Shown piece by piece: positions 7,869-63,000 of a DNA stretch of 64,000 bases. This DNA is from Physcia stellaris (Eukaryota; Ascomycota; Lecanoromycetes; Caliciales; Physciaceae): NCBI GenBank assembly GCA_018902385.1, contig JABSSW010000042.1, positions 1 through 64,000 on the forward strand, read 5' to 3'. Position numbers and translations under genes: made by a program. The number at the start of each line of letters is the position of its first letter. The stretch's first letter is position 1. The notes below the pieces were generated by a model. It was not told where the DNA came from. It saw only the letters and a list, made by a program, of their open reading frames with translations, and ran no database searches.

Positions 7869-7889
7869 TAATATCAATCGTAAAGAATG

Positions 7890-9193: not shown

Positions 9194-9319
9194 GCCATCG
9201 ATCTCTTCTCGCGTCTAGCAATTCCGCAAACACTCCGGCCGTCCCAGATCGCTTACATCTCGCAGGGTTCCAGCTAATGAAGAGTAGCTTTTACCAGGAA
9301 CAGAGGTAGCAACTCACAA

Positions 9320-40600: not shown

Positions 40601-41576
40601 CAACATATCATTCATGATTGTTTGAAAAATCGCAAAAACATTAATCAATTCGAAAAACATGACGCAAAATTCATATTTGTTTCGTTTGATATTGAATGTT
40701 GTTTTGTAACGATTTTTTTCGATCACATTGATTTGTCAATAATCATTAATTAAATCAATTTTGTTAAAATTTTTTGCTGTTTCGATCATGTTTAAACAAT
40801 TTTGAATTTTCGACAATGAATAGTCGTTTTTTTGCGTCATCGCGTTGAAAATTTTATAATTTATACACATACGTCAAAAATCATTTTTTTTGACAAAAAG
40901 AATTGACGTTTTTCATGACGACGTGTTTGATCGTATTAAATTTTTTTTTGTTAAATAATCGATTTGAATAATTTGTTCGTTCAATTGTTTTTTAAAAAAT
41001 TCGTACGAAAACTTGTTTATTGATTTAGCGTTTTCGATATCAATGCGATGATTTTGCGATCGTTTCGAAAATGATTGATTCGAAAAATCGTTTTTAAAGA
41101 CATTTTTCAACACGTCGAAATTCAAAATTTTGTTCAGTTTCGCGTTGTCGATAATGTGCTGAATGAAAGCAAATTTTTCAAAAAATTTGACGATTTTTTG
41201 ATCAATAATACGAACAACGTACAGATAAATTTGAACGTTTTTTCGTATCAATCGCTCGAAAACACGTTTCGTTACAATTTGAATTTCAAATGATTGATTT
41301 TCGAGAATTTGCAAACGAAAATTGTGATTTTTCATGTTCGCAAACAAAAATTTCTGATTTTCGTCTGTTACACGCATATCGAACGTATTGTAATCAGAAA
41401 TTAAACGATATTTTTGTCAGAAATTTTCGTTTAAAATCAAATCGTTATTCATATTAAAAATCAAACAGTCAATGATTGTATGAAATTCATTTTTGTTTCA
41501 ATTAAATTTAGTGAAATCAACGACGTCAACAGTTTTATTACTTTTCAACTGCATTTTGTCAGAAAAGTGTTGTAAT

Positions 41577-41749
41577 TGTTACAGCCGTGCATGGTAGTCG
41601 ATATTCATTAAACGAGAATTCTAAAACTAGAAAGGAAAGATGTACAGGTGAAGGTCGAAATGACCTGATGTAGAACTTGCAGATGCCAAGGCCCTAATCA
41701 CGTGTTCCTCCCAGCCCTGCGGCAATGCCTCCGGGGCACGCTCGTAACA
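41577..41749 (-). repeat. Element H 3' LTR, unmutated copy
   Basis: 173 bp, GC-balanced. It differs from the other LTR at about 30 sites, all transitions, and nearly all fit C-to-T/G-to-A decay of the other copy. Confidence 0.95.
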
Positions 41750-41766
41750 CTATCCCCCCCTCTCTG
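41750..41766 (-). promoter_or_regulatory. Polypurine tract of element H
   Basis: On the minus strand the bases directly before the LTR read AGAGAGGGGGGATAG, the expected plus-strand priming site next to a 3' LTR. It fixes the orientation of the element. Confidence 0.7.
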
Positions 41767-41790
41767 CAAGCTTCGTCCCGAAGCGACTAC

Positions 41791-42912
41791 CTATCCCTCC
41801 ATTCCTCCTCCTATCGGCCGGCGGTTCGAGGGGTATCGTTGGCGGAGCCGTCGGTAGTCGAACAGGCCATTGCTGAAGCTGGAACGACCGAAGCAGGTGC
41901 AACAAACGTGATCTGGGGGCGGAGATCGAAAGGACGGCGGAGACGTAGGCGGAGATGTAGGAGGCCAAGGCCATGCGAATGAGGACCTTGATGAGGACCT
42001 TGGCTGCAGCGAGGTGTAGGAGATGCCTGCCATTTTGTATGGCGAAAAGGCCGATTTCTCTAGCAGAGCAGAAGCAGGGCGGATCGGTTCCGCAGGCGTA
42101 TGCTGCTGAAAACTCTTCGGATTCGGGCTTTTCAGACCCTGACTAATCGGTGCCTTCTGATTGGATGCAGGCAGGAAGTATGCGGTGATTCGTGACTGGT
42201 AGGGAGTGCCAGGGCTTCGTGGAGAATGACGGCGCTTTTGGTGCTGCGGTAGGCCAAATGGTCTGGGCTTCCCACGAAACATGCGGACCAGGTCATCGAT
42301 TGTAAGGTGGGGCTTCGAAGCCGATTTTCGAAGCATTGGTGGAGGTGTTGCGGGAGGAGTAGGCAGCGGGCACGTTGTTGATGCTGTCTCCACACGCTTT
42401 GACGTTATTTTGGGTGTAGGTAGTGGGAGACGCGAGCGTTTTGGCGAGGTCCAGGATATCTGCTTTGGTGTTGCAGCAGGGGTAGCAGGCGGAGTAGGTA
42501 GATTTCTCAGCCGTTCTGAAGATGTGACTGGTCTAGATATCGAGATTTTTGATGTTGTTGTTGGTGAGATGATTGATTGAGTTGTTTGTGAGATTGTTGA
42601 TGAAATTGTTGAGATTTTATCTTTCTTTCTATTGAAGCTTCGTCTCGAAACTTTAACTATCTTCTTCGTGTGGTGTTGACGAATGTGCTCGTGAAGTTTA
42701 TTCTTTGAATCGAAGACTTTTTCGCAGTGCTTGCAGACGACTTTCTGACAAACAATCTGAGTATGTTGTAGCAAACGTGTCAACGAGAAAAAGAATGCGA
42801 AACACTGCACGCAGAAGTGATATTGCGACGAGAAAAAGCAAACGAAGCAAAAGAAATCTCGAATTTCGAAATAGATTTTGCAGAAAATGCAATGATCAAA
42901 ACTTCTAATCAC
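41791..42912 (-). CDS. C2H2 zinc-finger protein with PIP-like tail, in element H
   Basis: A 373-codon uninterrupted frame that stops 42 bases short of the 3' LTR. The N-terminal 85 residues hold Cys/His pairs: C8/C11, C22/C25, C34/C37 with H50/C55, and a classic C2H2 finger C60-x2-C63-x12-H76-x3-H80 (CKHCEKVFDSKNKLHEHIRQ). A basic stretch (83-100) and a Ser/Thr/Pro-rich linker with repeated LPTPPATP follow (101-200). The tail has TIDDLVRMFRGKPRPFG (204-220), then QSRITAYF (239-246), which matches the PCNA-binding PIP-box pattern Qxx(I/L/M)xx(F/Y)(F/Y), then NPKSFQQHTPAEPIRPASALL. Further finger-like Cys/His pieces lie upstream at 43377-43658 (CLTCFLKLYTKYYTFKSLKKH), so the original protein may have been longer. 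Related tails occur in elements E and G. Nuclear DNA binding is inferred from the fingers; function is unknown. Confidence 0.75.
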   Translation of the reverse strand: MIRSFDHCIFCKIYFEIRDFFCFVCFFSSQYHFCVQCFAFFFSLTRLLQHTQIVCQKVVCKHCEKVFDSKNKLHEHIRQHHTKKIVKVSRRSFNRKKDKISTISSTISQTTQSIISPTTTSKISISRPVTSSERLRNLPTPPATPAATPKQISWTSPKRSRLPLPTPKITSKRVETASTTCPLPTPPATPPPMLRKSASKPHLTIDDLVRMFRGKPRPFGLPQHQKRRHSPRSPGTPYQSRITAYFLPASNQKAPISQGLKSPNPKSFQQHTPAEPIRPASALLEKSAFSPYKMAGISYTSLQPRSSSRSSFAWPWPPTSPPTSPPSFRSPPPDHVCCTCFGRSSFSNGLFDYRRLRQRYPSNRRPIGGGMEG

Positions 42913-44421
42913 TCGCTTAGATTTCTCTTGACAATTTCGCTTTCGATTTGATTTTGTTGTTGTCTGTATCAGATTAACGCAAAATCACGCAAACAATCGA
43001 ATAACAAAGTCAGCAAATTTGACTCACGATATTGATGTCGACGTTGTCGAAATCGTTGCACAAAGTTCGCAATCTCGCGAAACAAACTGAATTTCTGAAT
43101 ATCGCACAAAAGAATTGCATCGAAATAATCGATATCGGCAACAACAAAAATAGATTTCGAAATTTCGACAATAACTTCTGAAATTTCAAATCTCGTCGTT
43201 TCGAATTGTATGACGAACGAACATTCGAATGATTGTCGAAAATAATATTTTAACGATTCTTTTTCGCGATCAACGTCGAATATTTTTATCGAACAATGAA
43301 CACATTGTGTCTTGTAACAGATATCAATGTCACTGAATTCGACGACGATTAAAACATTCTTTGAATCAACGTTACGTCATTTGTCTAAACTCGCTAGTCT
43401 GTTCTCGTATGTGCTCAGAAGTTTGACGAAAAGAGCGAAAGTAAAAAAAAATTCGATTTTCGACTTTTCAACAATATCGTTCGACTCGACTTTTTGTTGA
43501 AATTGTTGAACGAGCGAACAGTGTGATGCGTTTCGAAAATGCTTTTTCAACGACTTGAAAGTGTAATATTTCGTGTATAGTTTCAAGAAGCAAGTCAGAC
43601 ATTTCATATCATTCGAATTTACTGAATTGTTTTTTTCTGAAAAGTCAACGACGATCATGATTGTCTTGAAATGAAAACGACGTGTTGCGCTGAAATAAAA
43701 TCAAATGATTAACAGATTCGCTAATCGCTCTTCGTATGTGAATAACGATTTCAACGAAAAAGAAATCGAAATCGTACGATCTGTAAAGATCGCGAAAATA
43801 AAGACTTTCATGACGACGAAACGAAATCGAAATCGAACGATTTGAAAAATCTTCTGAATGAAACAGAAAAAAGCGCGTCGATTTGACGAACAAACGCGTA
43901 TGATTTCGTCACATATTTCGAATTGTATTGAAGATGTTCGAGCACTTGTTGAGAAAAAATGCTATATCGAACAGATAGAATAAATGAAATTGACGACGAA
44001 TCGAAAAACTGTTCCGAACGAAAACGAAAAAAACACGTCTATTGAACTTGTCAACGCGTGTATTTCAGAATTTTTTCGAGTTGTAAAGAGTAAAACACTC
44101 GTGCAATCGTTGAAGAAATTGTCGAATAAATAAATAGATAAAAGTTGAAATGTTGACTCGTGCAATTATCGAAAGAATATGACGAGCAAATAGATAAAAA
44201 GACGATCAATCATTGTACGAATAGCAATAAAACGTACTCGTATTGATGTGACAATAAATTTTGCAATTGATAAATCAGATTTTGATCTTGATTGACTGAT
44301 TCGATAACATCGTTATTGAATGTCATTCAATCGTGTTGTTTTTTTTCGATCACTGATGATTAAAAAGACGTATACAACAAGTACACGTCTCTCATTAAGT
44401 AGAAGTGAAATTTTAGAATAA
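42913..44421. other. Element H upstream region, partly mutated
   Basis: AT-rich but with many CT and AG dinucleotides kept, while CC and GG are nearly absent. Finger-like Cys/His pieces on the minus strand at 43377-43658 suggest that the zinc-finger coding region extended here. No gag-like protein is recognisable. Confidence 0.5.
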
Positions 44422-44594
44422 TGTTACAATCGTGCATGATAGTCGATATTCATTAAACGAGAATTTTAAAACTAAAAAAGAAAAATGTACAGATGAAAAT
44501 CGAAATGATCTGATGTAAAGTTTGCAAATGTCAAGATTCTAATCACGTGTTTCTTTCAATTTTGCGACAATGTCTTCGAAACACGCTCGTAACA
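44422..44594 (-). repeat. Element H 5' LTR, mutated copy
   Basis: 173 bp, exactly the length of its partner, followed by the target duplication GTAAT. Confidence 0.95.
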
Positions 44595-46269
44595 GTAATT
44601 TCAATTTCAACAAATCGACAATGCGTTGAACAATGAAACAATGAAAATTATTCGAATTTGCAAATATAACGACGCGACGTTTTTTTTTGCGTTCACATCG
44701 AAACGTAATCACGTTTTCGACATACGTTTATTAACATTCAAATTGATTAAAAACATCAATTCGTTTTTCGATTGTATTTTTGAAATGTACGAATTCTTTT
44801 CACGAATTTTAAAGTTTCAAGATTTCGACGTTTTTATATTTGACACTTTCGAAATCGTAATTGTGATAAACGAAATTTGTTCATTTTCAATTATCAAATC
44901 GTTTTTTTTGTAGATTTTGAACGATTTATCGTAATCATCGTGCAATTCATGCGACGACGATTTCAAACGTTTTTCGAATTTTTGTTTTTGTCACGATTTT
45001 TATCGTTTCGACGAAATCGTTAATTTGACGAATCATTTTTTGACACGATGAAATTCGAACAAATTGAAAACAAATAACTCGTTTGATCACAGTTGTAACA
45101 CTTTTTCGCGAAAACATTCATAACGTTTAAGTTTTTTTGTTGTTTATTGTTTTGAGCGACAAAAGTTTGTGTTAATTGATTCGTCGTTGAAATTGTTCGA
45201 AAAACACGAAAAACATATTTTTTTGCGTTGACATTTTCGTGTTTCGAAACATTCGTTATCATGTTGTGCAAATTCATATTCGAATACATTTGATTTTGAT
45301 TGAAAATGTAATTTCGAATATCGATTTTGAATTCGTCACGATATTTTTTTTTGATCGCAAATTCAATAACGTGTTCGTGAATGTTTTCGTATATCGACGT
45401 GAATTTGTTATTGTAATCGACGATTTTGTTGTATGCGTCAAATTGAATGATTTCGTTGTATATTTTGAAAAATTTCTGTTGTCAATCGTGTTCGTTTTAA
45501 CGAATAAAAAAGTATTTTTTGAATTCGAATCATTTGTCATCAGATTTTTGCAAATGAACAAACAAAAAAATAAATCATTCGACAGTTTTGTTTTCGAAAT
45601 ATTGTTCGATAACGATGAAAACGTTAATTTTGTTAATTAAATGTGAATTGAACACATGAAATTTTTCGTGCTTAAAAAGAAAGTTTTTGATTTCAACATG
45701 ATTACGTTCACGTTTTTGAAAAATTGAAAAACGACGATCGATAATTTGATCATCGAAAATAATTTGCGTTTCAATTTGAACGTCAAACAAAATAAAATCA
45801 AACAAATAATCGTCATCGTTAAAATCAACGATGCTCGCAAAAAATTGATTGTGATTCATGAATAAATTGATTCGTGATGTACGTTTTCGATCGCGACGAA
45901 ATTGATCATTTAATTGAACGACGACATCATTTTCGACGACGATATTATTTTCGACAAAATCGACGTTTTTTTCGTTCGAATTTTCGACGAGTTCGTCAAC
46001 GATTTCATCGAATTGATTGTCGAATTTTGTTGCAATGTTCGCAAAATCTGAAAAATCGAAAACAATCGTACGTTGTGAAAAATCATTTGAACGATCACGA
46101 CGACGTTTTAAATTATCATTTTGAATAAACATGATGATTGATGAATAAAAAATTCTAAAAATTTTGAATTTTCAAATGAATATCAATGACAAAAAAAGCA
46201 ATTTGAATTGACAAAAAGCAATGAACACAATCAAATACATTGTAAATGTAAAAAAAATGATGTTATCAA

Positions 46270-46452
46270 TGTAAAAATTCAAAACTAATAGAATTAATAT
46301 GAAAGATCGTTTGATTTTATATAATAAATTAGTCGCAAAAAACGCATAATTGATTTTGACAAAATTCAAAATCAAAATTAGATTTTGAATTTTAGACAAA
46401 TATATCGTTTCGATTGTCGAAAGATTTTCTGTCAAGCAATCTGATCATTACA
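46270..46452 (-). repeat. Element C 5' LTR
   Basis: 183 bp; pair of 36300-36483, followed by CTTTT and then by internal B sequence. Confidence 0.9.
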
Positions 46453-46730
46453 CTTTTGAAATTTTGTTTTGAAATTTTTTTTTTGTAATTTTCAATTTTT
46501 TCAAATTCGAATTTGTTTTTTAAACGAAACAATGCGTGATAACAAAACAATACAATCAATCATAAATGCGATATTTAATTCTATAATTGTCAATTTTTCA
46601 TTTTCGATTTGATGTTCGTTTCAATTTTCAAAAAACGTTTTTTTCGTTTTTTTTCAAAAAATTGCTTGATTGTTAAATTGTTAATTATACACGAATGATG
46701 TTAATTTGATAATTATGATAATTTCTAAAA

Positions 46731-47037
46731 TGTAAAATTCAAAAAATGTGACATCAAAAATGTATAACAAAAACGATTGTATAATTAAACTAATAATTGC
46801 AAAAATAATTAGTTTGCATATTTTCAATTATATATTCAATCAATTTGTTCAATCGTACACACATTTCGAAACATATTCGAAAATATGAACTTGTTAAATT
46901 TAATCGAAAATTTGATGTTAACGTGATCAGATTGATCGTTTTCATAATTTATTCGTTTCGATGATCGAATTGCTTGTATAATTTTATCGAAATTCGATTC
47001 GCAATATTTTATTGATTTGAATTCTGAATGTTTTACA
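46731..47037. repeat. Family B LTR, right (B4)
   Basis: 307 bp, TGTAAAATTC...TTTTACA. It closes the tandem array; the Copia integrase region resumes at the next base. Confidence 0.9.
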
Positions 47038-48779
47038 TGACAATTATATTCGTGAACGATTATATTGATTACATTTGATTGTATTTGATCAAAAATAAAT
47101 TCGATTTCGTCATCGTTTTCAAGAATTTTATTCAAATGATCAAAATTCAAAAATTAACAATCGAATTTTTTCGCATGAATAACGTCAAAAAAATATCAAC
47201 AAAAAAATCGAAAAATTCATGATCGAACACGAAATTCAATGAAAATTTATTGTTTCGAATAATTCACATCAAAATGAAATGTTTGAACAAACGTTTCGTA
47301 TTATTTTCAATAAAATACGTTTTATTCTGTACGATTCGAAATTATTCAAAACGTTTTGAAAAAAAATCGCTCACACGATGATTTATTTGAAAAACATCAA
47401 TTTTATTTTTTCGAATAATATGATATCGCATGAAATCTGAAATGAACAAAAATTCGATTTATTCAATTTATATTTATTCGAAACGTTGTGTTTTTCGAAA
47501 ATGAAACACATCAAAAAATTTGACGAACAAAAAATTTGACGAACAAAAAATTAAAAAATATTTATTCGATTACGAAATTTCGAATCAATATCGTATTTGA
47601 AAATTTATTAAACGTCAAATCATTAAAATTGTTCATGTGATGTTTAACAAATATATTAAATTTGAAATCGAAAAAAAAAAATGAAAATTACAATATTTTT
47701 GATTTCAATTTTTTGATTAATCAAACAAATCAAAATTTTTTAAATAATCAATGTACGATTGCAAATATTGCAAATTCGAACGATTTGAATTCGAATTTTG
47801 CAAAATCAAATGTTGAAAAACATAATTTCGATAATTTCGACGATTATCATGATTTATCAATTGCATTTATTGAAACAATTTTATCAATTGAATCAATTAT
47901 TACAATCGAATTATCAAAATTTTGTAAATTCATTTGTACGCAAAAACAATTTGAACGCAATTACGTTCATTAACAAAATTTTAGAAACAAAAATCACGAC
48001 GATGACGAAATTGTTGATTTCGAAACACAACGCGAAAATGTCAAAATTGCGAAACAAATCAAGCAATCACGAATCATCGATATGAAATACAATATATCGC
48101 GTAATTGACAAAAAATTCAATTTTATTCTGATAAAAAACGATGAATTCAAATCGCAAAAAAAATTCGAACATCACAAACATAATGACATTTGAAAATTGT
48201 TAATGTCGTTTTTAAAAATCAACGTTATTAAAATCGTTGAATATTTTCAATCAAACGTGATTTTAGCGATGAAATCGTCAAATACAAAACACGATAAATG
48301 ACGAAAAATTTCTTGCAAATAATTGACAAAAATTATTTCGAAATTTATTCAAAAATCGCTAAATCAATGATTTGAAAATGTATATTTGCATTGATCATCG
48401 AAAACAATTGAAAAATGCATCACGTTGACGTCGTTATTGCGTTTTTTGAATTAAATTTCAAAATGAAACAATAAATACAACAATCGTTCGATTTCGAAAA
48501 AACAAAATCGAAATTCGTTTGTTCGTTGAAAAATTTTTGTATAAATTGAAACAATTTTTTCGCGAATAATATGACTGTTTGAAAAAATATTTTATTTCAT
48601 TGAATTACATTTGTTTGTTTGTGAATAATTGCGTTTTCGTATATTTTATTGACATCATATTGTCAATTTACGTTGACGATTTTTTATTAATCAATTTCAT
48701 TATCAATGATATCGATCAAATTAAAATCGATTTGAACAAACGTTTTCGCATCAAAAATTTCGATGAAATACATTTTTAT

Positions 48780-49392
48780 TGTGACGAACGTGCATCGAAT
48801 TCAACATTTGACAAAATTAACATCGTGTTAACATCGTTATTTTATCACATCGAATGTTAAAATCGAAATTCGTCTTGACGCATTCGAAAAATCAAATTTT
48901 CTACATATGTTTTTGCAAGTTTTCATGTATTTGTTTTCTATTTAGAAATTCTCGTGTAATAGAACACAATTTATAAAAAAATATTCAATATATTCGCTTA
49001 ATGACGAATGATCGATCGAGAAACATTTTGATCAATTTTGCGTTCAAATTTGTTAAAGTCGATAATTTTCATCAATTGAAAATTCAAGTTGTCAATGCGA
49101 TAAATTATCAAATTCTTTTCGTTCAATCATCAAAGTTTTTGCGCTCGTGCAATTGTTGCATATTTTGCATCGAAATCAACAACAACGTATTATTTTAACT
49201 TATTTACTCAAAGTTGTAAAGCAAAATTAGCGCAATTCAACGTTGCAACAACAACGAAAATCGTTTCATTATCGCAATAATCATGTGATTTGAAAAATTA
49301 TGTTGTTGTCAATTTTCGAAAGAATTTTTTTTAAAAAAATTTCGAGTTTGTTTGTTATGTATTAATATTATATCAATGTATGACATTTCATA
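48780..49392. repeat. Solo LTR of family E, itself interrupted
   Basis: Ends TGTGACGAACG...TGACATTTCATA, flanked by TTTAT on both sides (48775-48779, 49393-49397), inside the Copia reverse transcriptase. About 400 bp at roughly 48960-49358 is foreign to the LTR and belongs to repeat F. It has one copy of the 48-bp block that is doubled in the LTRs of element E. Confidence 0.85.
48960..49358. repeat. Repeat F, copy 1
   Basis: Shares about 250 bp with 49845-50080, beginning at ACACAATTTATAAAAAAAT. It is inserted in the solo E LTR. Ends and type are unknown; no target duplication is evident. Confidence 0.5.
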
Positions 49393-49844
49393 TTTATTTT
49401 GAAATCAAAATCATCAAAAATCGCAAAAATCGAATTATGTGATTTACGCAAAAACGTTTATCAAACAATTTGTCAAAAATTGTGATTTTGAAAATTGCAA
49501 ATCAACGTCAATTTCAATGAAATCGTATTCATTCAAAACGAATATTCATAACGATGAAATGTATCAAGCATCGAAAAACGAAAAACATTTTTTTCGCAAA
49601 ATTATTGAATTTGATCAATGATTTATTTGAATAATTCGTTCAAATATCATCGTCGCGATCAATAAATTTTCGAAATACGTTTGTAATTCAACATCAATTC
49701 ATATGCATGTTGTCATGTATATCGTTCGATATTTATCGAACATTTCGAATTTAAATTTACGATTTGAATCAAAAACGAATCACAACAAAAAATTAATAAA
49801 TTATACAAATGCATCATATGCAAAATGCGAAAATATTTCTCGTT

Positions 49845-50080
49845 TTATAAAACACAATTTATAAAAAAATGTTCAGTATATTCGCTTAACACGAATGATC
49901 GATCGAAAAAAATTTTGATCAATTTTGTTTTCGTATTTTTTAAAGTCGATAAATTCAATCAATATTTAATTCACGTTTTCAATCGAAACATACGTCAAAA
50001 TCATTTCAAATGTGTTTCAATTTTTGCAATTGTTTTTTTCGTTGTATCGTCAACAATCATGACAAATTTTTTTATATTTT
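49845..50080. repeat. Repeat F, copy 2
   Basis: Same sequence family as 48960-49358 (shared ATTCGCTTAA and CGAATGATCGATCGA blocks). It interrupts the Copia RNase H region. Boundaries are approximate. Confidence 0.5.
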
Positions 50081-50202
50081 GTTGATTGAAATTTTGAAAT
50101 TCGTTATGCGTTTTTCAACGTCGTTGAAATGACGCGTTTTGATTATATGATTGTGAAATAATCACGTTGTTTATTTTTTTTGTTTGTTGATTTCATCAAA
50201 CG

Positions 50203-50408
50203 TATTGAAAAAATCATGAATGATTATTATTTTATTGTTTTGAATTTCGTTATTTTAATAAGTTACATGCAAATGAAAACACAAAAAATATGCGAATATC
50301 AAGACATTAATTTCAACAAGAACGCATTAATTTTTTTCGTCAAATTATATCAATTGAATTTTGATTACAACATTTGCACAGCACATTTGCGAAAATTATA
50401 TTTTAATA
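50203..50408 (-). repeat. Element G LTR, left
   Basis: 206 bp, preceded by AAACG; matches 59855-60062. Confidence 0.85.
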
Positions 50409-50550
50409 TTTTTTCACAGCAATCGTTTGTGTCATTTGCTTTGTATTTTAACGAATTCAGTTTGAAGTTTTCGTGCAAACTTTTTCAACGATACGTGTTT
50501 TGAAGTTTTCGTGCAAATTCTTTCAAAACGACGAATTCTGAAACTTTTTC

Positions 50551-50630
50551 AGCGATGTGATTTTTTCAGCGATGTGATTTTTTCAATGATGTGATTTTTT
50601 CAACGATGTGATTTTTTTAGCGATGCGTTG
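50551..50630. repeat. 18-bp tandem repeat in element G
   Basis: About four and a half copies of AGCGATGTGATTTTTTC with small variations, directly after two copies of a GAAGTTTTCGTGCAAA block. Confidence 0.8.
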
Positions 50631-50884
50631 TTTGAAATTTCCGAACAAATTCTTTCAACGATGACGTAAATTTTGTAAAATTAAATCATACATCGATGCG
50701 AAGATTGCAAAAACGAACGAATCGAAATTCGATACACGTAATGATTTGAAATATGACGTGAAATCGATTTCTAAAACGTGCGATCGAATAACTGAAAAAT
50801 TGCAACGTTTTGATTATGACTTTTTTTGAAATGCGACATCGATGTGAAATTTGATATTTAAAATTGACTGAAAAATACATCATG

Positions 50885-51149
50885 TGTGACGAACGTATAT
50901 CGATTTCAACATCTGAAATCAACATTTGATCAGTCATTAGAACGTGCATCGATTTCAACATCTGAAATCAACATTTGATCAATCATTAAAATTAACATTC
51001 TTATTTTATCACATCGAGTGTTAAGATCGAAACTCGTCTATGATCAAATTTTCTACATATGTTTTGTCAAATTCTCTGTACTTGTTTTTTCATTTCGATA
51101 TTTTCGTGTAATTATGTATTAATATCATATCAATGCATGACATTTCACA
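50885..51149 (+). repeat. Element E 5' LTR
   Basis: 265 bp; contains a 48-bp block in tandem twice (CGATTTCAACATCTGAAATC...). Preceded by TCATG. Confidence 0.9.
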
Positions 51150-52580
51150 TTATATCGAAATCACTTTAATTCTTTCAAATTGTTCGGAATACGACAACTT
51201 AATCAATAAACAAGATTTCAAACAAACGCGAAAATCTAAAACGTCATCAAATTCTAAACGTGCAACGAGAACGACGTAATTTTGCTCACGTGAAATCAAA
51301 AACCTAGACGATTTGAATGAGAACAACGAAACTTTATTTCACGCGAGTCATTCATTCAAAAAACAGCGATTTCGAGTGTGAATTTTCACGAAAAAATCAT
51401 TCCGATACTCAGCGAGACGACGAGATAATTGTAAATTGTGATCGAAACGACGAACTGAATCAAACGTCGAGATTCATGATCATTGACAATAGCGAAAACA
51501 ACGACGTCTTTTTCGTCATTGATTTCATAATCATTACATATCAATAAATCAGACTTAAATCATCAAGTCACAAAAACATCATATCAGAAATATTCGATCA
51601 AAAATCGAATCAGAAATTTCGTTATTCGATCAGAAATTTTCGATCGAATTTTCATCTTCTCGATCGAATTCGAACTATCTATTTTTTTCGAAAATTCTTC
51701 AAAATTCTATTTATTTTATTCGCAATTCGATCATTCTCTTTTATTTATTCGATTGCTTTAATATTTCAATCAGAAAGCTGTACGAAAATGACTGTGATAT
51801 CAAATCAAGAAATTCTCATATTTCGATTCAACATTTTCACAATACATCAGCATTGAAACTATTCTTTTTGTTCGAAAATTAGTTCGAAAAATCATCTGTC
51901 GATTTTACATATCAGTCTTTCTTTTCTATTCATTCGATGAACTCGATATCACGTCAAAAATCAACAACACATTGAGTCAACGAATTTCGAATATTCAGTC
52001 AACGATTCGTCAAAAAAATTTGATACAAAAATCATCTATTTTCTTCGAAAACATTGTCAAGTCATATCTGTTTTTCTCATCGATTGATCATACTCTTTGA
52101 TTTCAGCGATAATTTCAATATCGATCAAAAAAATTGTTCAAGTTTTCATCAGCATCTAATATTGCATCAATTCTTTTCACTTGAGAATTTTTCAATATTC
52201 TATTTATTTATTTAGCAAATCAGCATTTGTTTTCTGTCTCGATGTTAAATTCAATATCAAGTTTTCGAAACTTTGCATCAAAAATCACTGCATCAAAAAC
52301 GTTAAGAATTTTCTAACGAAATTCTTTTTACGCATTCGATATTAACATTATCTGAAATATTTGAAAATATTTAAGAATCACATCTGTTTGTTTAGCAAAT
52401 CGATTCTGATTTTCAGTTTTTGCGATGAAGTCAATATCATTTCAATTCAAAAAACTCATATCAATCATTTTTTCAAAATTCTTTTTCAACATCACTATTC
52501 GAATCATTTTTCACGTCGAAAAATCAGTTCAAAAACGTATTCAATTATTGAACAAACAGTCTTTCTTCTTTCGCATGAGC
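51150..52580. other. Element E leader region
   Basis: Lies between the 5' LTR and the zinc-finger region. One open frame (51317-51547, rich in Asp, Glu and Asn) shows no family. The rest, including many TCAATATC- and TTCGAAAAT-type short repeats, holds nothing recognisable. Confidence 0.4.
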
Positions 52581-52581
52581 A

Positions 52582-55500
52582 ATGACGTCAAAACAACAAA
52601 AACGAGAAACTCGAAAGCGAGCTGAAATTGCGAAATTTGCATCTTTTGCATTTTTCGATCTTTTCGATCCAAAACTCACACAAAATGATTCAGAATTTGA
52701 ATTGTTTTGCGAAATCACAGACATTTTACAACAATTTCGACAATTTCAACATCAACATCGAAAGTCGAATTTGTTTATGCTGTTACACGGCTGTTTGATG
52801 AATTTCGCTCTGAATTGATTCAAAAATCAATCGAAATTCATCTCATTATACGATTTCGATATAGATTTGACGAATGCATTTTTTTTCAAACAAATCAACA
52901 ATTCGTCTTTTTCAATCACTGTTTCAGAATCGACGTGCGAAACTTACGAAAACTTAACAAGTTTTACTATGATCATCTCGATTGCTTCGTCTGTTTCGCA
53001 AAAACAACAAAAATTTGAAAACTCAATTTCAAATCGCTGTCAATGATGTCAACTAATTTACGAGACTTGAAATTCACATCGTTTTCAATATTCTTCATGT
53101 AATATTCAAAATCAGCAAACATACGAATTCGTTTTGCAATTTCTTGAAAAATATACGAACGAAATCGTCGAACAACAAAAAGCGAATGCTCTGAAAATCG
53201 CGAAAAAAATCAAATTCAACGCAATCAAAAATGTCAAACGAATCAATTCAAAAGCGTTAAAAACAGAAAAAATTGCAAAATCAACATTAACAATTCAAAA
53301 TATCGATATTTTCGATTCGATTTTCACATGTAAAGATCGACGATTCGATGAATTCGCGAAATTCTTGTAACGTCTTCAGAAATGTCAGCATTTGTATCGG
53401 AAATCAAATTTGCTTATGCTATTATTCATTTGTTTTTGAAATTTTGCTTTCGATATCTGATACGATAAACAGAACAACATGAAATCAACATTTTTGAATG
53501 AATGAATTGAAATTCTGCGAGTCGAATTCGTCAACGTTTCGTTTGTAAAACTAATTAGTTGTTCGAAAATAATCTGCATGCGATGCGAGAAAAATTTCAA
53601 TTTCAAAAACAAGTTTCGCAATCATGTACGCAATCAACATGCGAAAAAATCGATCAACAATTCGAATTTCATGATCAATGCAGTCAAATCAACATGCGAA
53701 ATCGTCGAAAAATCAACAGTTTTCTGTCTGCTCGATTCGTTTGTTTTGCAAAAATCGCTTGTCTTTCTCGCAACATCACGAAAGTTCGTATCGAAATCTG
53801 AAATAATTGTCGAAGCGATTATTTCATCAACGAATTCGATTCTCACGATTGCGACAGTCAGTAATATTTTACAATCAATGAAAAACGATTCAATTCAATG
53901 CTTTTCTGTTTCGTGAATCTCATTTTCAACGCTGAAATCAAAATATCAAGAAATTCTTGTTCGAAAGTTTGCAACATTTAATCAGATACGCGAATCTGCA
54001 TCAATTTCCGAATCAATCATTTCATCAGAGTGTTCAAGTCTTTCGTCTTTTACATTTGAATACATATTCGAATCGACAGAAAATATATCTATTCAACGTT
54101 TTTTTGATTCGTCGAAATTGCAAATTTCTATTGCAACATCAAAGCAAATTTTTGAGTCAGCATTGATTTTCAAAGCGATCATTTCATCGAAAATTTCGCA
54201 TTTTTCATCTAATGCATCAAATACTGTATCAGAATTGATGAAGAACATATCAATTCAATGTTCATTTATTTTGTCGAAATCATCATCTTTTCAAACGTTC
54301 GAATCAGAGCATCATGAATTCGCTGTTCAAAAATCGAACGAAAAAAGCTCGCTTTTCAAGATTTCGTCAAACAAATCAGTATGCGAAAACGAAAAAAATT
54401 CAACTGTCATTGATTCGTTTGTTTCGCTTGCATCGTTTCTTTCAGTTTACAAAAAAAATTATTCTATTTGTCGAATCGTTGTTATCTCAATCAAAAAACA
54501 TTATTTCGAATTTTCTTCGTGTCATGAAGCATTACGTCATAAATTAAAGCAACAATTCGCTCGTCGTGCACATCAACGAAAACAAAAAACTCAAAAACAA
54601 ATCGAGTTGTTCGAACAAAACGCTCTGAAACAAGCAAAAATTGAAAAAATCATTGATCAGTTCGTCAAAAATTCTCATCTCTTTATCAATACAATCAATT
54701 TCGTATGCGAAATCGAAAAAACAACAAAATCAGCGAAAAAATCAGCAACTTGTCGACGTTGCAATCAAATATTCAATTTCAATAACAAATTTCACGAACA
54801 TATACGCGAACGTCATGCTCGAAAATTTGTCAAAAATTCTGATTTTCGAATCTTCGCATCAAAACTCACACACAAAATCATTGAAAAATCAACAAACATT
54901 GATTCGTCTGTTTCGTTTGTTTCGCAAATATCATTTAATTTCTTTGCAACATCTAGAAGTCAGAAATTCTGAATTTCAATAATTTTCGAATCAATCATCG
55001 CATCAACGCGTTCGAATCTCTCGATTGCGACATACAAAATCAATTCAAAGTCGATGAAAAGCGCAATCGTCAATCGTTCGCTCATTTTTTCATCTATTTC
55101 ATCGCATACATCAGTTCGAAAACATCAAAAATTTCACGTTCAAAAATTCTATCTGATTATGAATGACTTGCATCGCATGTTTCATGAAAAATCTAAATCA
55201 TTTGATTTACGTCAGCATCAAAGACGTCGTTTTTTTTCGCAAAACATCAACGCTCGATTATTTGTCACATATCAATTTCGCATCATCGTTTATTTCTTGT
55301 TTGCAATCAATCAGAAAACATCAATTAGTCAAAATCTGAAAAGCTCGAATTCGAAAAGTTTTCAACAACATACGTTTGCGAAAGCGATTCGTTCTGTTTT
55401 TGTTTTGTTTGAAAAATTTGTCAATTTATCATACAAAATGTCTGATGTTTTTTGCACTCATTTGAAATTTTCTGTCGAGACTTTTTTTTTCATTTTCATA

Positions 55501-55650
55501 TTTTTTCGTTTTCTTTCGGTTTTTTTTCTTGTTTTCGCATTCGTTTCGATTATTTTCGCTGCAAAAATGAACTGTATTAACGTTTATCAACAAGTCATTT
55601 TCGTCATTGATCGTGTCAATATTGAATTAATCGTTTCGAAACGAAACTGA
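52582..55650 (+). pseudogene. C2H2 zinc-finger gene remnant in element E
   Basis: Several open pieces on the plus strand. Finger pieces are CEKNFNFKNKFRNHVRNQH (about 53578-53650) and CRRCNQIFNFNNKFHEHIRE (about 54757-54820), both C-x2-C-x12-H type like the finger in element H. The longest piece, 54118-54972 (284 codons), has a Gln/Lys/Arg-rich stretch before the finger. The tail at 55054-55650 parallels the tail of the H protein: MNDLHRMFHEKSKSFDL, QFRIIVYF (55273-55296, same QxxIxxYF pattern) and SFQQHTFAKAIRSVF. Two partly similar blocks at 52740-53000 and 53390-53760 suggest duplication of a finger module. The element is a broken fossil. Confidence 0.65.
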
Positions 55651-55732
55651 AAAAAAACGAGAAATAAATATTCAGTCACGAAACATTTTCATGAAAAATG
55701 TTTTGCATACACGTTTTACTGAATAAATCGTA

Positions 55733-56080
55733 CATATCGATTATCGCATGCGTTCAAATATCGATGCGTTAATCGTTGTTACGCGAATTCTGTTAATACA
55801 GTGAAACTGTTTGTTTCATGATATAATCGATTTAAGATTTTCAAGAATTCTCAAGAATGTTGACACGTTTTTGCTTACTAATGATCGTCGAAGTTACTCG
55901 TAAAAAATTGTATAAATTGATCATTTTTCAGAAAATTTATTACATTCATGTTCTGTTGAATGCAATGTACACATCGACAATCGCATATGCGTAAATATCA
56001 ATGCATTAAACGTTGTTGCGAAAGTTTTATCAACATGACGAAACTGTTCGTCTCATCGTATAATCGATTTGATGTTGCAA
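55733..56080. repeat. Diverged tandem duplication in element E
   Basis: A block at 55733-55835 (CGATTATCGCATGCGT...GAAACTGTTTGTTTCAT...ATAATCGATTT) recurs at 55970-56075, a spacing of about 240 bp. It lies downstream of the zinc-finger frame. Confidence 0.6.
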
Positions 56081-56692
56081 GAATTCAACATTTACATTAA
56101 TGCGAAACATTTACATTAATGTTTTCATTAAATTCAAAAGTTCGAGTTTTCGATTTTTTACATTCTAAACTACGTATTAAATTTTAGAGAAGCAAGTTTT
56201 CAGTCGTTTGTTCATTTCATCATTTACGTCATCGTTTGCATTTTTTGCGAATTGATTGCAAATCAATTTCTTTATCAATTGCAATGATTTCGATTTCAAA
56301 TATTTCGTATAAATTTGCATTCGTCATCAAATTACAAATATTTTTATTTACATCGAAAGTCTGATAAAAGCGAATCGTTATCTCGATCAGAAATTCAAAA
56401 CGTTGAACAATTTTTTCGTCTCGATCAGTCAATCTGCTTTAAAATTTTTGAATTTCAAATATTTCTAAATGATTTATCATATCATTTATTCGCAAATATT
56501 ATGATTCATGTTTCGCAATCAGATTTCGAATTGAAATTCGAAAACGTTTTCATTTTTTTTATTCTGTATTTGTATTAATCACTAATGAACATCGCATGCA
56601 TGATCAAAAATTTGCAAAAGAAAACGTTTTTTCATCATACGAAATGACGTGATATTTTTCGCATATTTTATGTTTTAATAATTTTTTCACAT

Positions 56693-56983
56693 TTGAATTC
56701 AAACGCAAATTTTCTGAAAAATTTTTCTGCTCAGAAAAAACGATCGTTTCATTATACTAAATGTCAGATATTTTCGACATTCAAAAATTTTCGCAAACAT
56801 CAAAGTCGCATCGATTTGCAAAAATTTTTTTCGTCGTTTTCAGTTCAGATTTTTGTGCATCTTCATGACTGTCGCGTTCGTTATGAATTCAAAACATTTA
56901 CGAACAAATCATCGAGATCACGTACATTGTCGATCGATGAAAAAAAAAATAACAATGAATTGATCGCTTCGAGACGAAACTGA
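56693..56983 (+). other. 96-codon frame near the element E 3' LTR
   Basis: Unrecognised. It ends NNNELIASRRN, much like the end of the zinc-finger frame at 55650 (NIELIVSKRN), and both are followed by a purine-rich GAAACTGAAAAA stretch. It may therefore be a duplicated gene end. Confidence 0.35.
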
Positions 56984-57000
56984 AAAAGAACGAAAAGTAA

Positions 57001-57264
57001 TGTGACGAGCGTGCATCGATTTCAACATCTGAAATCAACATCTGATCAATCATTAAAACGTGCATCGATTTCAACATTTGAAATCAACATTTGATCAATC
57101 ATTAAAATTAACACTTTTATCTTATCACATCGAATGTTAGAATCGAAACTCGTTTATGATCAAATTTTTTACATATGTTCTGTCAAATTTTCTGTATTTG
57201 TTTTTTCATTTCGATATTCTCGTGTAATTATGTATTAATATCATATCAATGCATGACATTTCAC
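57001..57264 (+). repeat. Element E 3' LTR
   Basis: 264 bp; pair of 50885-51149 with the same doubled 48-bp block, followed by TCATG. Confidence 0.9.
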
Positions 57265-57690
57265 ATCATGAAACAAATATCAATTGTTTGAATTTTGCGA
57301 TGATGAACGAAAATGCAAATCACATCATGATTTGATAACATCATTGTGATTCAAAATTTTCAAATATTTTTTGCGACATCAATGATCGAATATTGATGCG
57401 ATTTGACTGTAAAATGTTCATAAAATATGTCAATGATGTGAAACAGACAAAAAATGATCGAGAAATCGATAAAAAAAATAATGCATCGAATGCGAGCAAA
57501 TTTTTGCGAACATACATCGATGCAACGAATGCAAAATCGAACTTTTCTGATTTTATTAAATTTTGTCAGAGAATCAGATCGATTAATATGCGAAAAAATC
57601 AAATATTTTCAACATTATTTATTTTTCTTGATCGAATTCTTGTATTTTTGATCGAATTTCTGTTTTGCAAAATCGAAATGTAATGATTTC

Positions 57691-57948
57691 ATAATACGCT
57701 TTTTCGAAACGATATTATGTGATTACATGTCATACGAGACTGTATAGTAGATTTTTTCGAAACGATATTATTTGATATCAAATTTTTGTTGTAACAAATT
57801 CAATACGCTTTTTCGAAATTGTATTGTTTAGTTTATTTTTTCTCTTTTAACAATTGTGCGTACAGTACGTCAATACGTTTTTTCGAAATTGTATTGTAAC
57901 GACTGTACGTCTATTCTGACGACTGTACGTTTTTTCGAACTGTATTGT
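57691..57948. repeat. Array of hairpin units with a shared loop
   Basis: Five units of 25-30 bp centred on ACG(C/T)TTTTTTCGAAA, at about 57691, 57747, 57801, 57871 and 57926. Flanking arms pair and differ between units: ATAATA/TATTAT in the first, CAATAC/GTATTG in the third and fourth. It lies inside element G, to the right of E. Confidence 0.7.
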
Positions 57949-58489
57949 CATTTTTTTTTCTCGTATTTATCGAGCGACTGAAATTTCAAAAAATAATAAA
58001 AAATAAAAACGATAATCAGTCGTGTTAAATCAAAACGAAACAACAAAAATAAATTTTTACAAAAACATACAACAACTTTTAAAGTTTTTTCAGATCATAA
58101 AACGAAAAAGACGAAATATCGAATTCATTAAAACAACAATTTTTAGTTTTTTCAGATCATGATCGATCAACGATTGATAAAAACGAAAAAAAACGAACAA
58201 AACAAACAAACAACATGTTAATTTTTTCAAAATAGTAATTTCAAAAAGATCAATATTTTTTCAAAATAGAACGAAAAGAAGAAAAATTTCAATAACGCAT
58301 TTTCATGCATATTTTATTGTTTTCAATTCTTGAAACATTTGACATGACTCAATCAATAAATCAATGAAAAACGAAACGTTTTTGACAATGCTTGCAAATA
58401 AAAAACGAACGAAAAACTCTTGAAAAAAAAAAAACGCATCGAAAAAAAAAATCGAAAAATTCGCGAAAATAACGTGCGAATCGAATGTT
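57949..58489. other. Element G internal, no gene seen
   Basis: AT-rich, with A runs and short TTTTTCAGATCAT repeats (58087 and 58149). No protein-like frame. Confidence 0.4.
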
Positions 58490-59320
58490 TCATCGAAACG
58501 TGAATTGATGAAATGTTTCGAATTTGATCAATTTCGAAACAAATGAAATCGTCGCATGAAAATATAACGTAATGCGATTTTGTATGAAATCACATTTGTT
58601 TTTGAAATTGCATTTGTCAAAATTGCGCGAAAACAACGATTTGTTTTGATTTGATTGCAAATCAAACGAATTCGACTTTTCAACGAACATGTCAAACAAA
58701 TTGTTCACAATGAAATAAAATCTCGATGATGAAATTCGATGCGAAATAAACGAACAAACAACGTTTGCATTTTTCAAGAATTTGCACATCGATTTGAATG
58801 TCGCAATCGAAAAACTAGAAAATTTCGACGCAACGATTGATTTTGAGACAATTTTTACTCAAAATATCGATTTTCTTGATGTTGCAATCGACGAAAAATC
58901 TGACAAAATTTCGAAAAAAAAATCCGAAAAAACAAGAATAGAAGTAGTTGATGACTCGACTATTAATTTCGATAACGCAAAAAATGACGAAATAATCGAT
59001 TGAAATGACGAAACAAAAAATGAAAAAATCATCGATTGAAATGACGTAAAAAATGAAACAATTGATTGTTGAACAGACTTCGACTTTTTCGCATGTCGAA
59101 TGCGAATATGTTCGTGAAATTTGATGTTGTTGTCGAATTTGATCGAATGTTTGCAACGTTTGCACGTATATTTTTCAATTCGTTTCGTTGTTATGCGAAT
59201 TTTCTCTTTTTGCTTTGTCAATTTTTTTGCTTTTTGTTTGAGTTTGCTTTTGATTTTCGATTCGTGTTTTCGCATTAAATAATTTTTTGCGTTTTTTTTG
59301 CTTGAACGAATCAAACGCAT
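58490..59320 (-). pseudogene. C2H2 zinc-finger gene remnant in element G
   Basis: Two minus-strand pieces. The first (59320-58859) has a basic Lys-rich N-terminal part and the finger CKRCKHSIKFDNNIKFHEH followed by IRIRHAKK, close to the fingers in H and E. The second (58789-58490) is the tail: IVNNLFDMFVEKSNSFDL, then QNRITLYF (58582-58559), the third instance of the QxxIxxYF pattern, then FETFHQFT. Gene order and tail match H and E, so the three share a common origin. A broken fossil. Confidence 0.65.
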
Positions 59321-59854
59321 TTTTGATTGATTTGATTTTGTTGATATTATTCGTACAAAAATCGAAAATTTTGCGTTATTGATTCATTCGTGAAAATGTT
59401 ATTCGCAAAAATGCAAATGCAAAAAAAAAATGATCAAAAAAGAAAAACGAACGACGATTCGAAAATGAAAAATGCGAAATTCGCAAAAAAAATACGAATT
59501 GTCATTCTGATTGAATGATAAATAAACGAATTCGCGTAAAAATTTCGATATCGTAAAACAATTAAATAAACGAGTTCGTAAAAAATTCGTACGATGAATA
59601 AATAAATCGAAAACTGACTGTTTCGAAAAATAATAAAATAAATAAAATGTTCGAAAACTGATTTGTATCAAAATATTGAATGCTGTCAATGCAATTGAAT
59701 CAATTCTGATTTGACAAGATTGAATATTTCATTGAGTTGATATTGTTGTTGTATTGCAAATCTGTTGTATTGTTTACGACTAGATATTACGTGCGTTTAT
59801 GTTGTAATTGATCTTGATGATATAACGAAAATTGTTAATTCGATTTTCATAATC

Positions 59855-60062
59855 TATTGAAAAAATCATGAATGATTATCATTTTATTGTTTTGAATTTC
59901 GTTATTTTAATAAGTTACATGCAAATGAAAACACAAAAAATGTGCGAATGTCAAAACATTAATTTCAACAAAAACGCATTAGTTTTTTTTTCGTCAAATT
60001 ATATCAATTGAATTCTGATTGCAACATTTGCACAACACATTTACGAAAATTGTATTTCAACA
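59855..60062 (-). repeat. Element G LTR, right
   Basis: 208 bp; pair of 50203-50408, followed by AAACG. Confidence 0.85.
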
Positions 60063-60067
60063 AAACG

Positions 60068-63000
60068 TTTGTTTGTCAAGTTTTTTTTTCGTGTTTTGAT
60101 TTTGCATTTTCGTTTCATTTTTTTTTCAATTTATATTTACATTTCAATTGTTTATTTGCTGTCAGAATGATTTTTTTCGATCGTTTTATTTTTGTTGTTG
60201 AAAATCGATTCAACAATATTATCAATCGAATTAACAATCAAAATCGTCAACAACAATTCGCGATGTTTGTGAATTCGTATGAAATTATCATTTTGTTTTT
60301 TCATTTTGCAAATTCAACGAAAACAACGTTTAAACGATTTTTCAATGATGTTATCAATATTGTTAACAATGTGTTTTTCAAAAAACGCGATAAAAAAATC
60401 GAATATCGAAAAAACGTCACGTTTGCATCATTGTCATTCAGAACGTTTTACAATTTTATTTTTTTTGAATTTGTTGTTGTACGTTTTCGTCAAAAAATAC
60501 GACGATTTGCGCGTTTCGCGAATCGTTTTTTTTTTTTCAATTTTTTTTTCAAGAAAAAAACGACGATCACGATTTCGACGATTTTTTTCTTATACGATCA
60601 TACGCAAATTTCGTTGATCACGAATTCGATTAGAAATTTGAACACGTTTTCGATCAAAATAATGACGAAAAGAAAAAATCACGTTTGTTTAATCGAAAAA
60701 ATAAAAAAACATACGCGAAAAAAATCGTCAAACAACGCGTTCGAATTCGAAAATTTGATTTCAAAAATCGACGTGACGACAAAAATTTGAATTTTGATTA
60801 TATGATCGTTCGCAAGAAAAACGTGATATTTGACAAATATGTATTGTCGAAATTGCATGACGAACACGACAACAACGTGTGTTTTTTTTGCGATGTTTAT
60901 CAATATTTCGAAAAATGTCATCGCAAATTTATCGACGATAAATATTGACATTGTTGCGTCAACGACAAAATCTCATCGAATATGATGATTTTTGAAACAA
61001 ATTTTGACGTTGTAACGAAATTGCTCGACGATTTCGAAAAAAACGCAATTTTACAACGTGACGTTGATTTCAAATATTTAAATTATTTTTTGTATGAAAT
61101 GCGATTTACAATCGATTTCAATTCACGCAAACGATTGAATAAACGATACAAAAAATTTCAAAAAATGATCATTATTTTCAACAACGTTTTGTCGTTTATC
61201 AATGAAAACGCGAAAATGAATGAAAAACACAATTTTTGAATTACATTTCGCATCATGAAATCAATTCATCACATGTTGAATGTTTTTTTTGTCGATTCAA
61301 ATGATCGTCGTCGTTTTTGTCAAATATATTCGTTTGATTTTTCGCAAAAAATTTTATTGAAACGTTTGATTCACGATGAACAATTGTTTGAAAAAAAATT
61401 TCACGAATTACAAAAATTGATAATCAAATACAATTCGTACGTTTAATCGTTCAAAAATTGTAATAATCGTTTGAAAAATAACGATTTTAAAATCAAAATC
61501 GTTTTGAAACAACATGATTTCAAACGAATATTGAAAAATACGCATAATTAATTCATTTTCGAAAAAATCGTTGTTGTTTTAAACATGTTCGAAATGTTTG
61601 ATTCGAATAAATCAATCGAAAAAAATATTGTGATGCAAATTTACGACGATGATTTTATTCGAGTATTTTATTGACATTTTTGTTACATGACGTTTCGATA
61701 TTTTTTTCTGTTTTCGTGCGAAAAACAAAATTGAATGTTTATTATATTTTTTTTCGATCACGAAAACAGTCGTGATTTTCGTGTTCGCAAAATTTCATTC
61801 GACGCAATATTTCGATCGATTCAAAAACACGATCAGAAATTCGACGATAACGAAAACGAGAAATTTGCACGTAATCAGAACGAGAAAAACGACGACAACA
61901 ATGTTCGAATTGAAAAAAAAAAATCGAAACGAATGATTCAAAAAGAATTTTATTCGTATATTATTCAAATACGTCGTTTTTTGCATTTTTTGCACTGAAA
62001 TACGTTTTCGATTTCGACTAGTTTTTTTACGTAAATTTTGTCAAATGTTTCGTTTTTTGCATATTTGAAAAAAGAAAAATTGTTGCGAAAATCATTTTTT
62101 TATTAGTAAAATTTCTCATTCGTTAAATCGTGAAATTTTCAATAACGATAAATTGTTATTCGTGTTCTGAATTTCAACAACGTATTTCTGACACGATTTA
62201 ACGCGTTGTTGAAATTTTCATCACGATATAAATTTCGCATACGTTTAACGAATCGATCGATTGATGCAAAAAAAATACGATAAATTTGTTGTTTTTCTGT
62301 TGCGCGAAATCAATGTATTAATATAAAAATTTCGTTTTTTTATTTTCGTCAATGTATTGATGTCAAAATCACGTTTTTTTTGATGTTATACATATACAAA
62401 ATCGTCAGAAAAAATTCAATCGTGTGTTGCATTCGAAACGTTTGTTCAACATTTTTTGATAAATGCGTTTGCTTGCGTAAAATTCAATAATTTCAATTTC
62501 GTTCGTTTTAATCAGCAGTTTTTGCGAATTGAATTTTATCGAAATTTGATAAATTGACTGAATCAAAATTTTGAATTCAATGATATTAATCAAAAAATGA
62601 CGATATTGTCGTCAAATCATACGAAATTTTTTCGATACATGAAAATCAAAAAGCAAAACGTTTTCGTTTTGATTCGAAAATTCAATAAATTCATTTTTTT
62701 TATTATTTTCATTTGCAATTCACGCTAAATGAAATTCGAACGAGATTTTTTTTCAAACGTTAATATCGTCAATCGTTTCGATTTGATAATTAAAATGTTT
62801 CAATTGAAATTCAAAAAATTTTTGCGCGATTTTATCGAACGTTATGTCATGAAAATGATAAACGCGCACATTTACGTTATCGAATTTCAAAAAAAGAAAT
62901 TTGTCACACGTTTATATTTTATTCATTGCAAATTTTCGAAATGAATTCGATGAAAATAACATTGACAACGTCATTTATGCAATCATATTTTTCAAAAAAA

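What the first reader, a model, noticed from the sequence alone, without database searches (positions are those of the whole stretch)
41577..60062. Three different LTR elements each carry a related C2H2 zinc-finger gene and no recognisable pol
Elements H (41577-44594), E (50885-57264) and G (50203-60062) have unrelated LTRs (173, 265 and 206 bp) and separate target duplications, yet each carries a zinc-finger protein with the same finger style (CxxC...FHEHIR) and the same tail (NDL..MF..K..SFDL, QxxIxxYF, SFQQHT). In H a polypurine tract shows that the gene is in sense with the element. Repeated association suggests a lineage of non-autonomous LTR elements whose cargo, or own protein, is a zinc-finger factor. 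I know of no named family with this layout.
Basis: partly seen in the sequence, partly recalled or inferred. Interest (0 to 1): 0.92.

Follow-up and report, generated by a model that had tools for sequence, protein, structure and literature searches.

The report
Pol-less LTR elements sharing one gene
In a lichen fungus, several families of jumping elements that lack the copying enzymes carry versions of one unusual gene, a zinc-finger protein with a motif that looks made to grip the DNA-replication clamp and sometimes a chromatin-binding type domain, so the elements may share a helper protein of their own.

Summary
H, E and G are LTR elements with exact 5-bp target duplications and related zinc-finger genes. 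The window matches the lichen fungus Physcia stellaris. Family genes fall into 133 position clusters on 65 contigs. Among the best-scoring copies fetched, an LTR pair plus exact duplication flanks 12 of 21 class I and 20 of 26 class II; mismatched flanks agree in 32 of 1260 pairs. All 12 close-spaced class III LTR pairs enclose a family gene.

Some proteins carry BIR (survivin-type) domains (4 of 21 class I, 10 of 26 class II insertions). Intact class I proteins have a domain that models like a retrotransposon capsid. The QxxIxxYF tail fits the PCNA-binding (PIP-box) consensus, in 79 of 90 relatives against 4.3 expected.

H and E share LTR ends. Undamaged class I copies look self-primed, and their 3' junction matches an apparently intact Ty3/Gypsy element, the likely helper type. 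G and gag-less class II have other LTRs and no self-priming match, so one gene family is shared between different pol-less LTR families, under purifying selection.

PCNA or histone binding and the tether role are inference. Most literature searches failed.

The parts
41572..41576 (.). H target-site duplication GTAAT, left copy
   Evidence: exact 5-bp repeat
41577..41749 (-). H 3' LTR (TGTTACGAGCG...GGCTGTAACA in sense)
41750..41766 (-). H polypurine tract next to the 3' LTR
   Evidence: sequence; the same junction in C26, C36 and C48 is 38-39 of 44 identical to Gypsy L040, (H itself not scored)
41791..42912 (-). H open frame, 373 aa: C2H2-type fingers, TIDDLVRMF motif, PIP-box-like QSRITAYF, SFQQHT tail
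42652..42828 (-). C2H2-type zinc-finger pair of H (Pfam matches under cutoff)
42864..43160 (-). capsid (Gag CA)-like domain of H, broken by stops
   Evidence: tblastn; predicted fold of the C26 homologue
42828..43649 (-). N-terminal part of H gene (BIR region plus capsid-like region), hypermutated
   Evidence: BIR in intact homologues
44405..44421 (-). position of the primer-binding site (TTATTCTAAAA...); in less damaged type A copies it is complementary to LTR-internal AGTTTTAGAAT, in H itself only 7 nt remain, no better than chance
44422..44594 (-). H 5' LTR, hypermutated (31 of 32 differences to the 3' LTR are C>T or G>A)
44595..44599 (.). H target-site duplication GTAAT, right copy
50203..60062 (-). 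element G (class III type, LTR related to C66), interrupted by E; TSD AAACG at 50198-50202 and 60063-60067
58490..59320 (-). G zinc-finger gene remnant (KRCKHS..FHEHIRIRHAKK; NNLFDMF; QNRITLYF), relative of P0083/P0085/P0086
50885..57265 (+). element E (related to H at LTR ends), nested in G; TSD TCATG at 50880-50884 and 57266-57270
50885..51149 (+). E 5' LTR
57001..57265 (+). E 3' LTR
53559..55650 (+). E zinc-finger/PIP-motif gene, broken frames

Best explanation
H, E and G are non-autonomous LTR retrotransposons of Physcia stellaris. Each encodes one protein, from a family carried by at least three LTR-element groups. Shown by sequence: class I (H, C26, C48, C36 and relatives; E by its LTR ends and tail) reads BIR or other N-terminus, capsid-like domain, C2H2-type fingers, proline-rich tail, TIxDLxxMF motif and a PIP-box consensus. 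Class II reads BIR (in some) or another N-terminus, finger, TIxDLxxMF, PIP consensus, second finger, without a capsid domain. Class III (G) has one finger-like CRRCK..LHEHIRTRH stretch, TIxDLxxMF-like and PIP-like motifs. Copies are LTR-bounded with 5-bp duplications and no pol was seen in them. Inferred: (1) reverse transcriptase and integrase come in trans. For class I the best candidate is a self-primed Ty3/Gypsy element of the L040 kind, because undamaged class I copies match its 3' junction and layout. (2) In class I the protein serves as the element's own Gag-type RNA-binding subunit. (3) In all classes the protein is a nuclear tether: fingers hold nucleic acid and the PIP box docks on PCNA at replicating DNA; BIR, where present, adds a histone-tail type contact. 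(4) Because it helps whichever helper is used, the C2H2-PIP module has moved between LTR families.
Confidence: 0.58

Rival explanations
1. The gene is host cargo: nuclear zinc-finger or BIR host genes captured several times by LTR elements that are otherwise passive, with selection acting for the host or left over from it.
For: BIR proteins are normal host proteins (Bir1; PMC3158057, passages read). Class II proteins look like complete cellular nuclear proteins without Gag. Two BIR loci in the genome are not in elements I identified (C2, C23), and the BIR of two class II copies is closer to C23 (39-43%) than to class I. 3 of 26 class II insertions examined showed no LTR.
Against: No non-LTR copy of the C2H2-PIP core was identified as a parent, though not every copy was fetched. 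The core motifs are conserved across three LTR groups.
Confidence: 0.22
2. The protein protects the elements from the genome's own hypermutation or silencing (acting through PCNA or histone contacts) rather than helping copying or integration.
For: Strong RIP-like mutation surrounds the elements, yet many copies have open frames.
Against: Many copies, including H, E and G, are hypermutated. The 29 elements compared are only 79.8-89.5% identical to their nearest neighbour, so low similarity alone may let them escape a homology-triggered process.
Confidence: 0.12
3. Class I is a derivative of an unknown autonomous Gypsy element whose Gag had C2H2 fingers; classes II and III took over part of that Gag.
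For: Capsid-like domain; 3' junction and self-priming layout shared with Gypsy L040.
Against: L040's own Gag shows a CCHC knuckle and no BIR or C2H2 match. In both same-strand neighbours checked an LTR separates the gene from pol.
Confidence: 0.3

Closest known systems
TR-GAG and other gag-only non-autonomous LTR elements of plants (recalled; searches and look-ups for them failed)
   Same: LTRs, TSD, short internal region, one Gag-type protein, no pol (class I).
   Different: Capsid-like domain is joined to C2H2-type fingers, a PIP-box motif and in some copies BIR, instead of CCHC knuckles; classes II and III lack the capsid domain yet share the rest.
Self-primed Ty3/Gypsy (Tf1/sushi type, recalled), here the element L040
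   Same: Primer site complementary to an internal LTR site; TGTTACGAGC LTR start; similar purine-tract junction (undamaged class I copies).
   Different: No protease, RT, RNase H or integrase in the elements; different protein.
Bdelloid rotifer LTR elements that share extra ORFs with other retroelement classes (PMC5408684, abstract and section 3.4 read)
   Same: The same accessory ORF type occurs in unrelated retroelement groups.
   Different: There the ORF is an addition to gag-pol; here it is the only gene, and its domains differ. That paper shows DEDDy ORFs closer to each other than to host genes; here this was not shown, and for BIR the comparison points partly the other way.
HeT-A of Drosophila (recalled)
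   Same: Gag-only element relying on RT in trans, its Gag thought to direct nuclear targeting.
   Different: HeT-A is a non-LTR element of telomeres.
IAP/Bir1/survivin BIR proteins
   Same: BIR domain by Pfam and by sequence match to BIRC1 and survivin structures.
   Different: Fused to C2H2 and PIP-type motifs and carried on mobile elements.

Membership tests
LTR retrotransposon, non-autonomous | paired LTRs with short exact target duplications | tested here: met
   control in 112
LTR retrotransposon, non-autonomous | no pol inside the element | tested here: met
   gene runs to the 3' LTR in H, and the class I and II elements cut out are 1.9-3.0 kb; two same-strand RT neighbours lie beyond an LTR
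TR-GAG type element | encodes a Gag capsid domain and nothing else of gag-pol | tested here: inconclusive
   class I by predicted fold only, sequence support weak; the class II and III proteins scanned gave no Gag family
self-primed Ty3/Gypsy (Tf1/sushi) group | PBS complementary to the start of its own transcript | tested here: inconclusive
   9-11 nt complement to an LTR-internal site in the 12 class I copies and E, not in H; transcript start not known; no such match in class II or III
self-primed Ty3/Gypsy (Tf1/sushi) group | RT and integrase of that clade in the element | tested here: not met
   no pol; at most it borrows from such elements
BIR (IAP) domain proteins | PF00653 over curated cutoff with C..C..H..C zinc ligands | tested here: met
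   class I P0001, P0002, P0004, P0034, P0040; class II P0067, P0065, P0078; not in class II P0081 nor class III P0083, P0085, P0086
BIR (IAP) domain proteins | histone H3 or caspase/Smac-type binding | not testable with these tools
   needs binding assay
PCNA-interacting (PIP-box) proteins | Qxx[ILMV]xx[FY][FY] (consensus recalled), conserved | tested here: met
   79 of 90, 4.3 expected from shuffles
PCNA-interacting (PIP-box) proteins | binds PCNA | not testable with these tools
   needs binding assay
Ty1/Copia | initiator-tRNA (half) primer site in G/class III | tested here: inconclusive
   GGTTATGAG after the LTR of C66 resembles the tRNA-iMet anticodon loop (recalled); the tRNA pattern tried was not found

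The most novel reading that the evidence does not exclude
A self-contained accessory gene, a C2H2/PIP-box nuclear tether (with BIR added in some), is the common currency of pol-less LTR elements in this lichen fungus. It is shared between LTR families with different priming and lets each borrow different helpers by docking its RNP or cDNA on PCNA at replicating chromatin.
Probability: 0.27. Interest if true: 0.9.

Novelty: new variant of a known kind. Interest (0 to 1): 0.8.

Why it matters
Non-autonomous LTR elements are usually regarded as passive. Here they appear to keep, under purifying selection, a single protein with replication- and chromatin-type motifs while giving up the enzymes, and the same protein family is found in LTR groups of different kinds. 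If it does tether elements to PCNA or histones, it would be a testable case of a parasite of a parasite that supplies its own nuclear targeting. It would also carry BIR domains, of which Bir1 homologues are reported in most fungi (PMC3158057 passages), into mobile DNA.

Tried and rejected
Gag-pol fusion: C6 and C100 had gene and RT on one strand, but an E-like 3' LTR lies between them. Single-lineage view: class II and III LTRs and priming sites differ from class I. Host gene family without LTRs: rejected for the copies with LTR and TSD, not for all. The C7 Copia upstream region as helper of class II: no matching LTR or PBS seen in the 2 kb read. Initiator tRNA by pattern TGGGCNCATAACCCAG: no match. 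A PDB sequence search with a PIP peptide gave nothing; one with the capsid-like profile gave one unrelated weak row. Full-length model: mean pLDDT 53.5; only the BIR, capsid-like and finger parts were used. 'Chromovirus' for L040 was dropped: Pfam shows Tf2-1-like SH3 but no chromodomain at E 0.01. Pfam matches such as Pox_VLTF3 or Nrap in single proteins are under their cutoffs. In one search the one control hit overlaps the H gene. In one search an apparent TSD at C106 was not counted because its ends do not look like this LTR; C126 was counted although one LTR end is altered. L069 and L071 (class I places) were left out. A first set of domain dN/dS values (first finger 0.03, core 0.06) was discarded as biased, since the segments were picked by patterns that demand conserved residues; the alignment-based values replace them. 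That script stopped with an error at its last item (BIR). In one search only ORFs of at least 330 aa (17 of 18 class II) and 440 aa (9 of 12 class I) entered, and 24 of 36 class I pairs passed the filter.

Odds: after checking, confidence was lowered from 0.62 to 0.58 and the novel case from 0.3 to 0.27, because BIR proved a minority feature and the domain selection values were weaker; the host-cargo rival was raised from 0.20 to 0.22.

Literature: only searches gave text. Paper searches failed and look-ups in 81, 82, 85, so no claim is made that this is absent from print. The third protein search (class II/III profile) could not be made.

Full report
What is in the window. H (41577-44594, TSD GTAAT), E (50885-57265, TSD TCATG) and G (50203-60062, TSD AAACG, split by E) are LTR elements with exact 5-bp target duplications. 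H runs on the minus strand: 5' LTR 44594-44422, primer site, gene, purine tract, 3' LTR 41749-41577. A profile from 49 database relatives finds H, E and the right part of G at E 8.9e-167, 3.8e-93 and 3.5e-31, while in 672 control frames the only match overlaps H itself. H and E share LTR starts and 3' junction features; G does not. H's two LTRs differ at 32 sites, 31 of them C>T or G>A, so the 81% identity reflects hypermutation rather than age.

Organism and copy number. All named relatives listed are Physcia stellaris proteins, and a contig length agrees with that assembly. Searches with P0002, P0067 and P0081 gave places that fall into 133 clusters more than 4 kb apart on 65 contigs. This is a rough count: positions were typed in, only those not seen before; nested insertions can split a copy; only the best candidates were scored, and G itself is not among the places. 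The unnamed hits come from ENA contigs of unstated origin, so the wider host range is not known.

Three groups. DNA was returned only for the best-scoring copies. Class I (H, C26, C48, C36 and others): of 21 stitched insertions, 17 show a repeat pair, three of these (C74, C34b, C100) partial or weak, and 12 have an exact TSD with believable ends. Class II (P0067 type): of 26 distinct insertions in 28 loci, 23 have an LTR pair (some cut or diverged) and 20 an exact TSD; L059, L067 and L070 have none. Class III (G type, P0083/P0085/P0086): C66 has LTRs 93.9% alike, while C34 showed one LTR only. Of 40 LTR matches scored (164 candidates) 12 pairs lie 2.7-3.2 kb apart, all 12 enclosing a family gene; of the 16 unpaired LTRs 7 have a family gene nearby.

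Recent, yet without close sisters. Own-LTR identity is 89-100% over the 29 class I and II elements compared, with 100% in C26 and C23, but the nearest other element in that set is only 79.8-89.5% identical. The set is not the whole genome, so a closer copy may exist. My explanation is that a homology-triggered mutation process destroys close pairs, so that only divergent singletons stay intact. This is inference.

Selection. Median pairwise dN/dS is 0.38 for 9 class I ORFs (24 of 36 pairs usable) and 0.57 for 17 class II ORFs (136 pairs, 22% under 0.5). By alignment columns in class II an ISWAEIA motif gives 0.22 (17 sequences), the TIxDL core 0.26 (16), the PIP region 0.37 (16) and the C-terminal finger 0.57 (15); the first finger was too divergent or poorly aligned to compute. 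The core and PIP motifs are being kept; the case for the fingers is weaker.

Mobilisation. Class I primer sites are exact 10-11 nt complements of a site inside their own LTR in 10 of 12 copies; C41 has 9 nt and C5 11 nt of A and T only. H itself is too mutated to show it (7 nt, matched by 774 of 2000 random pieces) and E shows 10 nt. The motif differs between types A, B and E in step with the LTR. Random internal 30-mers did as well in 0 of 2000 trials for 8 elements, 12-50 of 2000 for C48, C42, C5 and E, and 166 for C41. The Ty3/Gypsy element L040 (gag 486 aa with CCHC, pol 1061 aa with RT, RNase H, integrase; LTRs 100%; flanks GAATC on both sides) has the same layout with its own 11-nt motif. 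Its 44-nt 3' junction is 38-39 of 44 identical to C26, C36 and C48, 29-31 to C41, C53, C46, C20 and C14, and 25 to E, against a best of 21 in 20000 random placements. This makes L040's kind the best helper candidate for class I; only this one Gypsy was examined. Class II has AATGGTAGCATCATC after the LTR, found at 17 sites that all match class II copies, and no clear purine tract. Class III C66 has GGTTATGAG after the LTR. Their helpers are unknown.

How it works, and what is only inferred. Shown: mobility signature, lack of pol, domain make-up, selection, sharing of the gene family across LTR types. Inferred: trans supply of enzymes, Gag role of class I, PCNA and histone docking, and exchange of the gene between families rather than repeated capture. 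Rivals are host-gene cargo, an anti-hypermutation role, and a decayed unknown Gypsy Gag.

Comparison. The nearest named kinds are gag-only LTR elements (TR-GAG, recalled) and the bdelloid case of one ORF type shared by unrelated retroelements (PMC5408684, abstract and section 3.4). The domain combination and the gag-less class II and III fit neither. Because most paper searches failed, I cannot say it is unpublished.

Noticed in passing
window 12001-41000 and 45001-64000; also H against C26: The RIP-like hypermutation here hits CpC and CpT and spares CpA and CpG: on both strands of 12001-41000, C is followed by C 21, T 236, A 3424, G 3406 times (GC-rich 1-11000: 1480, 1451, 1486, 1244). H against C26: C>T at CC 229/410, CT 130/370, CA 26/357, CG 24/380. 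Canonical RIP prefers CpA (recalled), and TpA is depleted (0.43), so a TpA/ApT index would miss it. Possibly more novel than the finding given; the one paper search on it failed.
   Followed up: partly
H, window 41577-44594: Hypermutation is uneven within one element: against C48, C>T at CpC is 128/163 in the 5' part and 54/216 in the 3' part.
   Followed up: no
29 elements compared: LTR pairs up to 100% identical while the nearest other copy in the set is under 90% identical: recent insertions without close sisters.
   Followed up: partly
class II and III proteins, e.g. P0067, P0086: A further conserved motif ISWAEIASRPVxAPKPSRLPI (class II dN/dS 0.22) of unknown meaning.
   Followed up: no
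G000 C12:57396-64108 (L040): Ty3/Gypsy element with open gag and pol frames and identical LTRs in a genome with many hypermutated copies.
   Followed up: partly
G000 C2:1420246-1420686: A second non-element locus with two BIR domains in a 300-aa frame, besides the likely Bir1 at C23.
   Followed up: no
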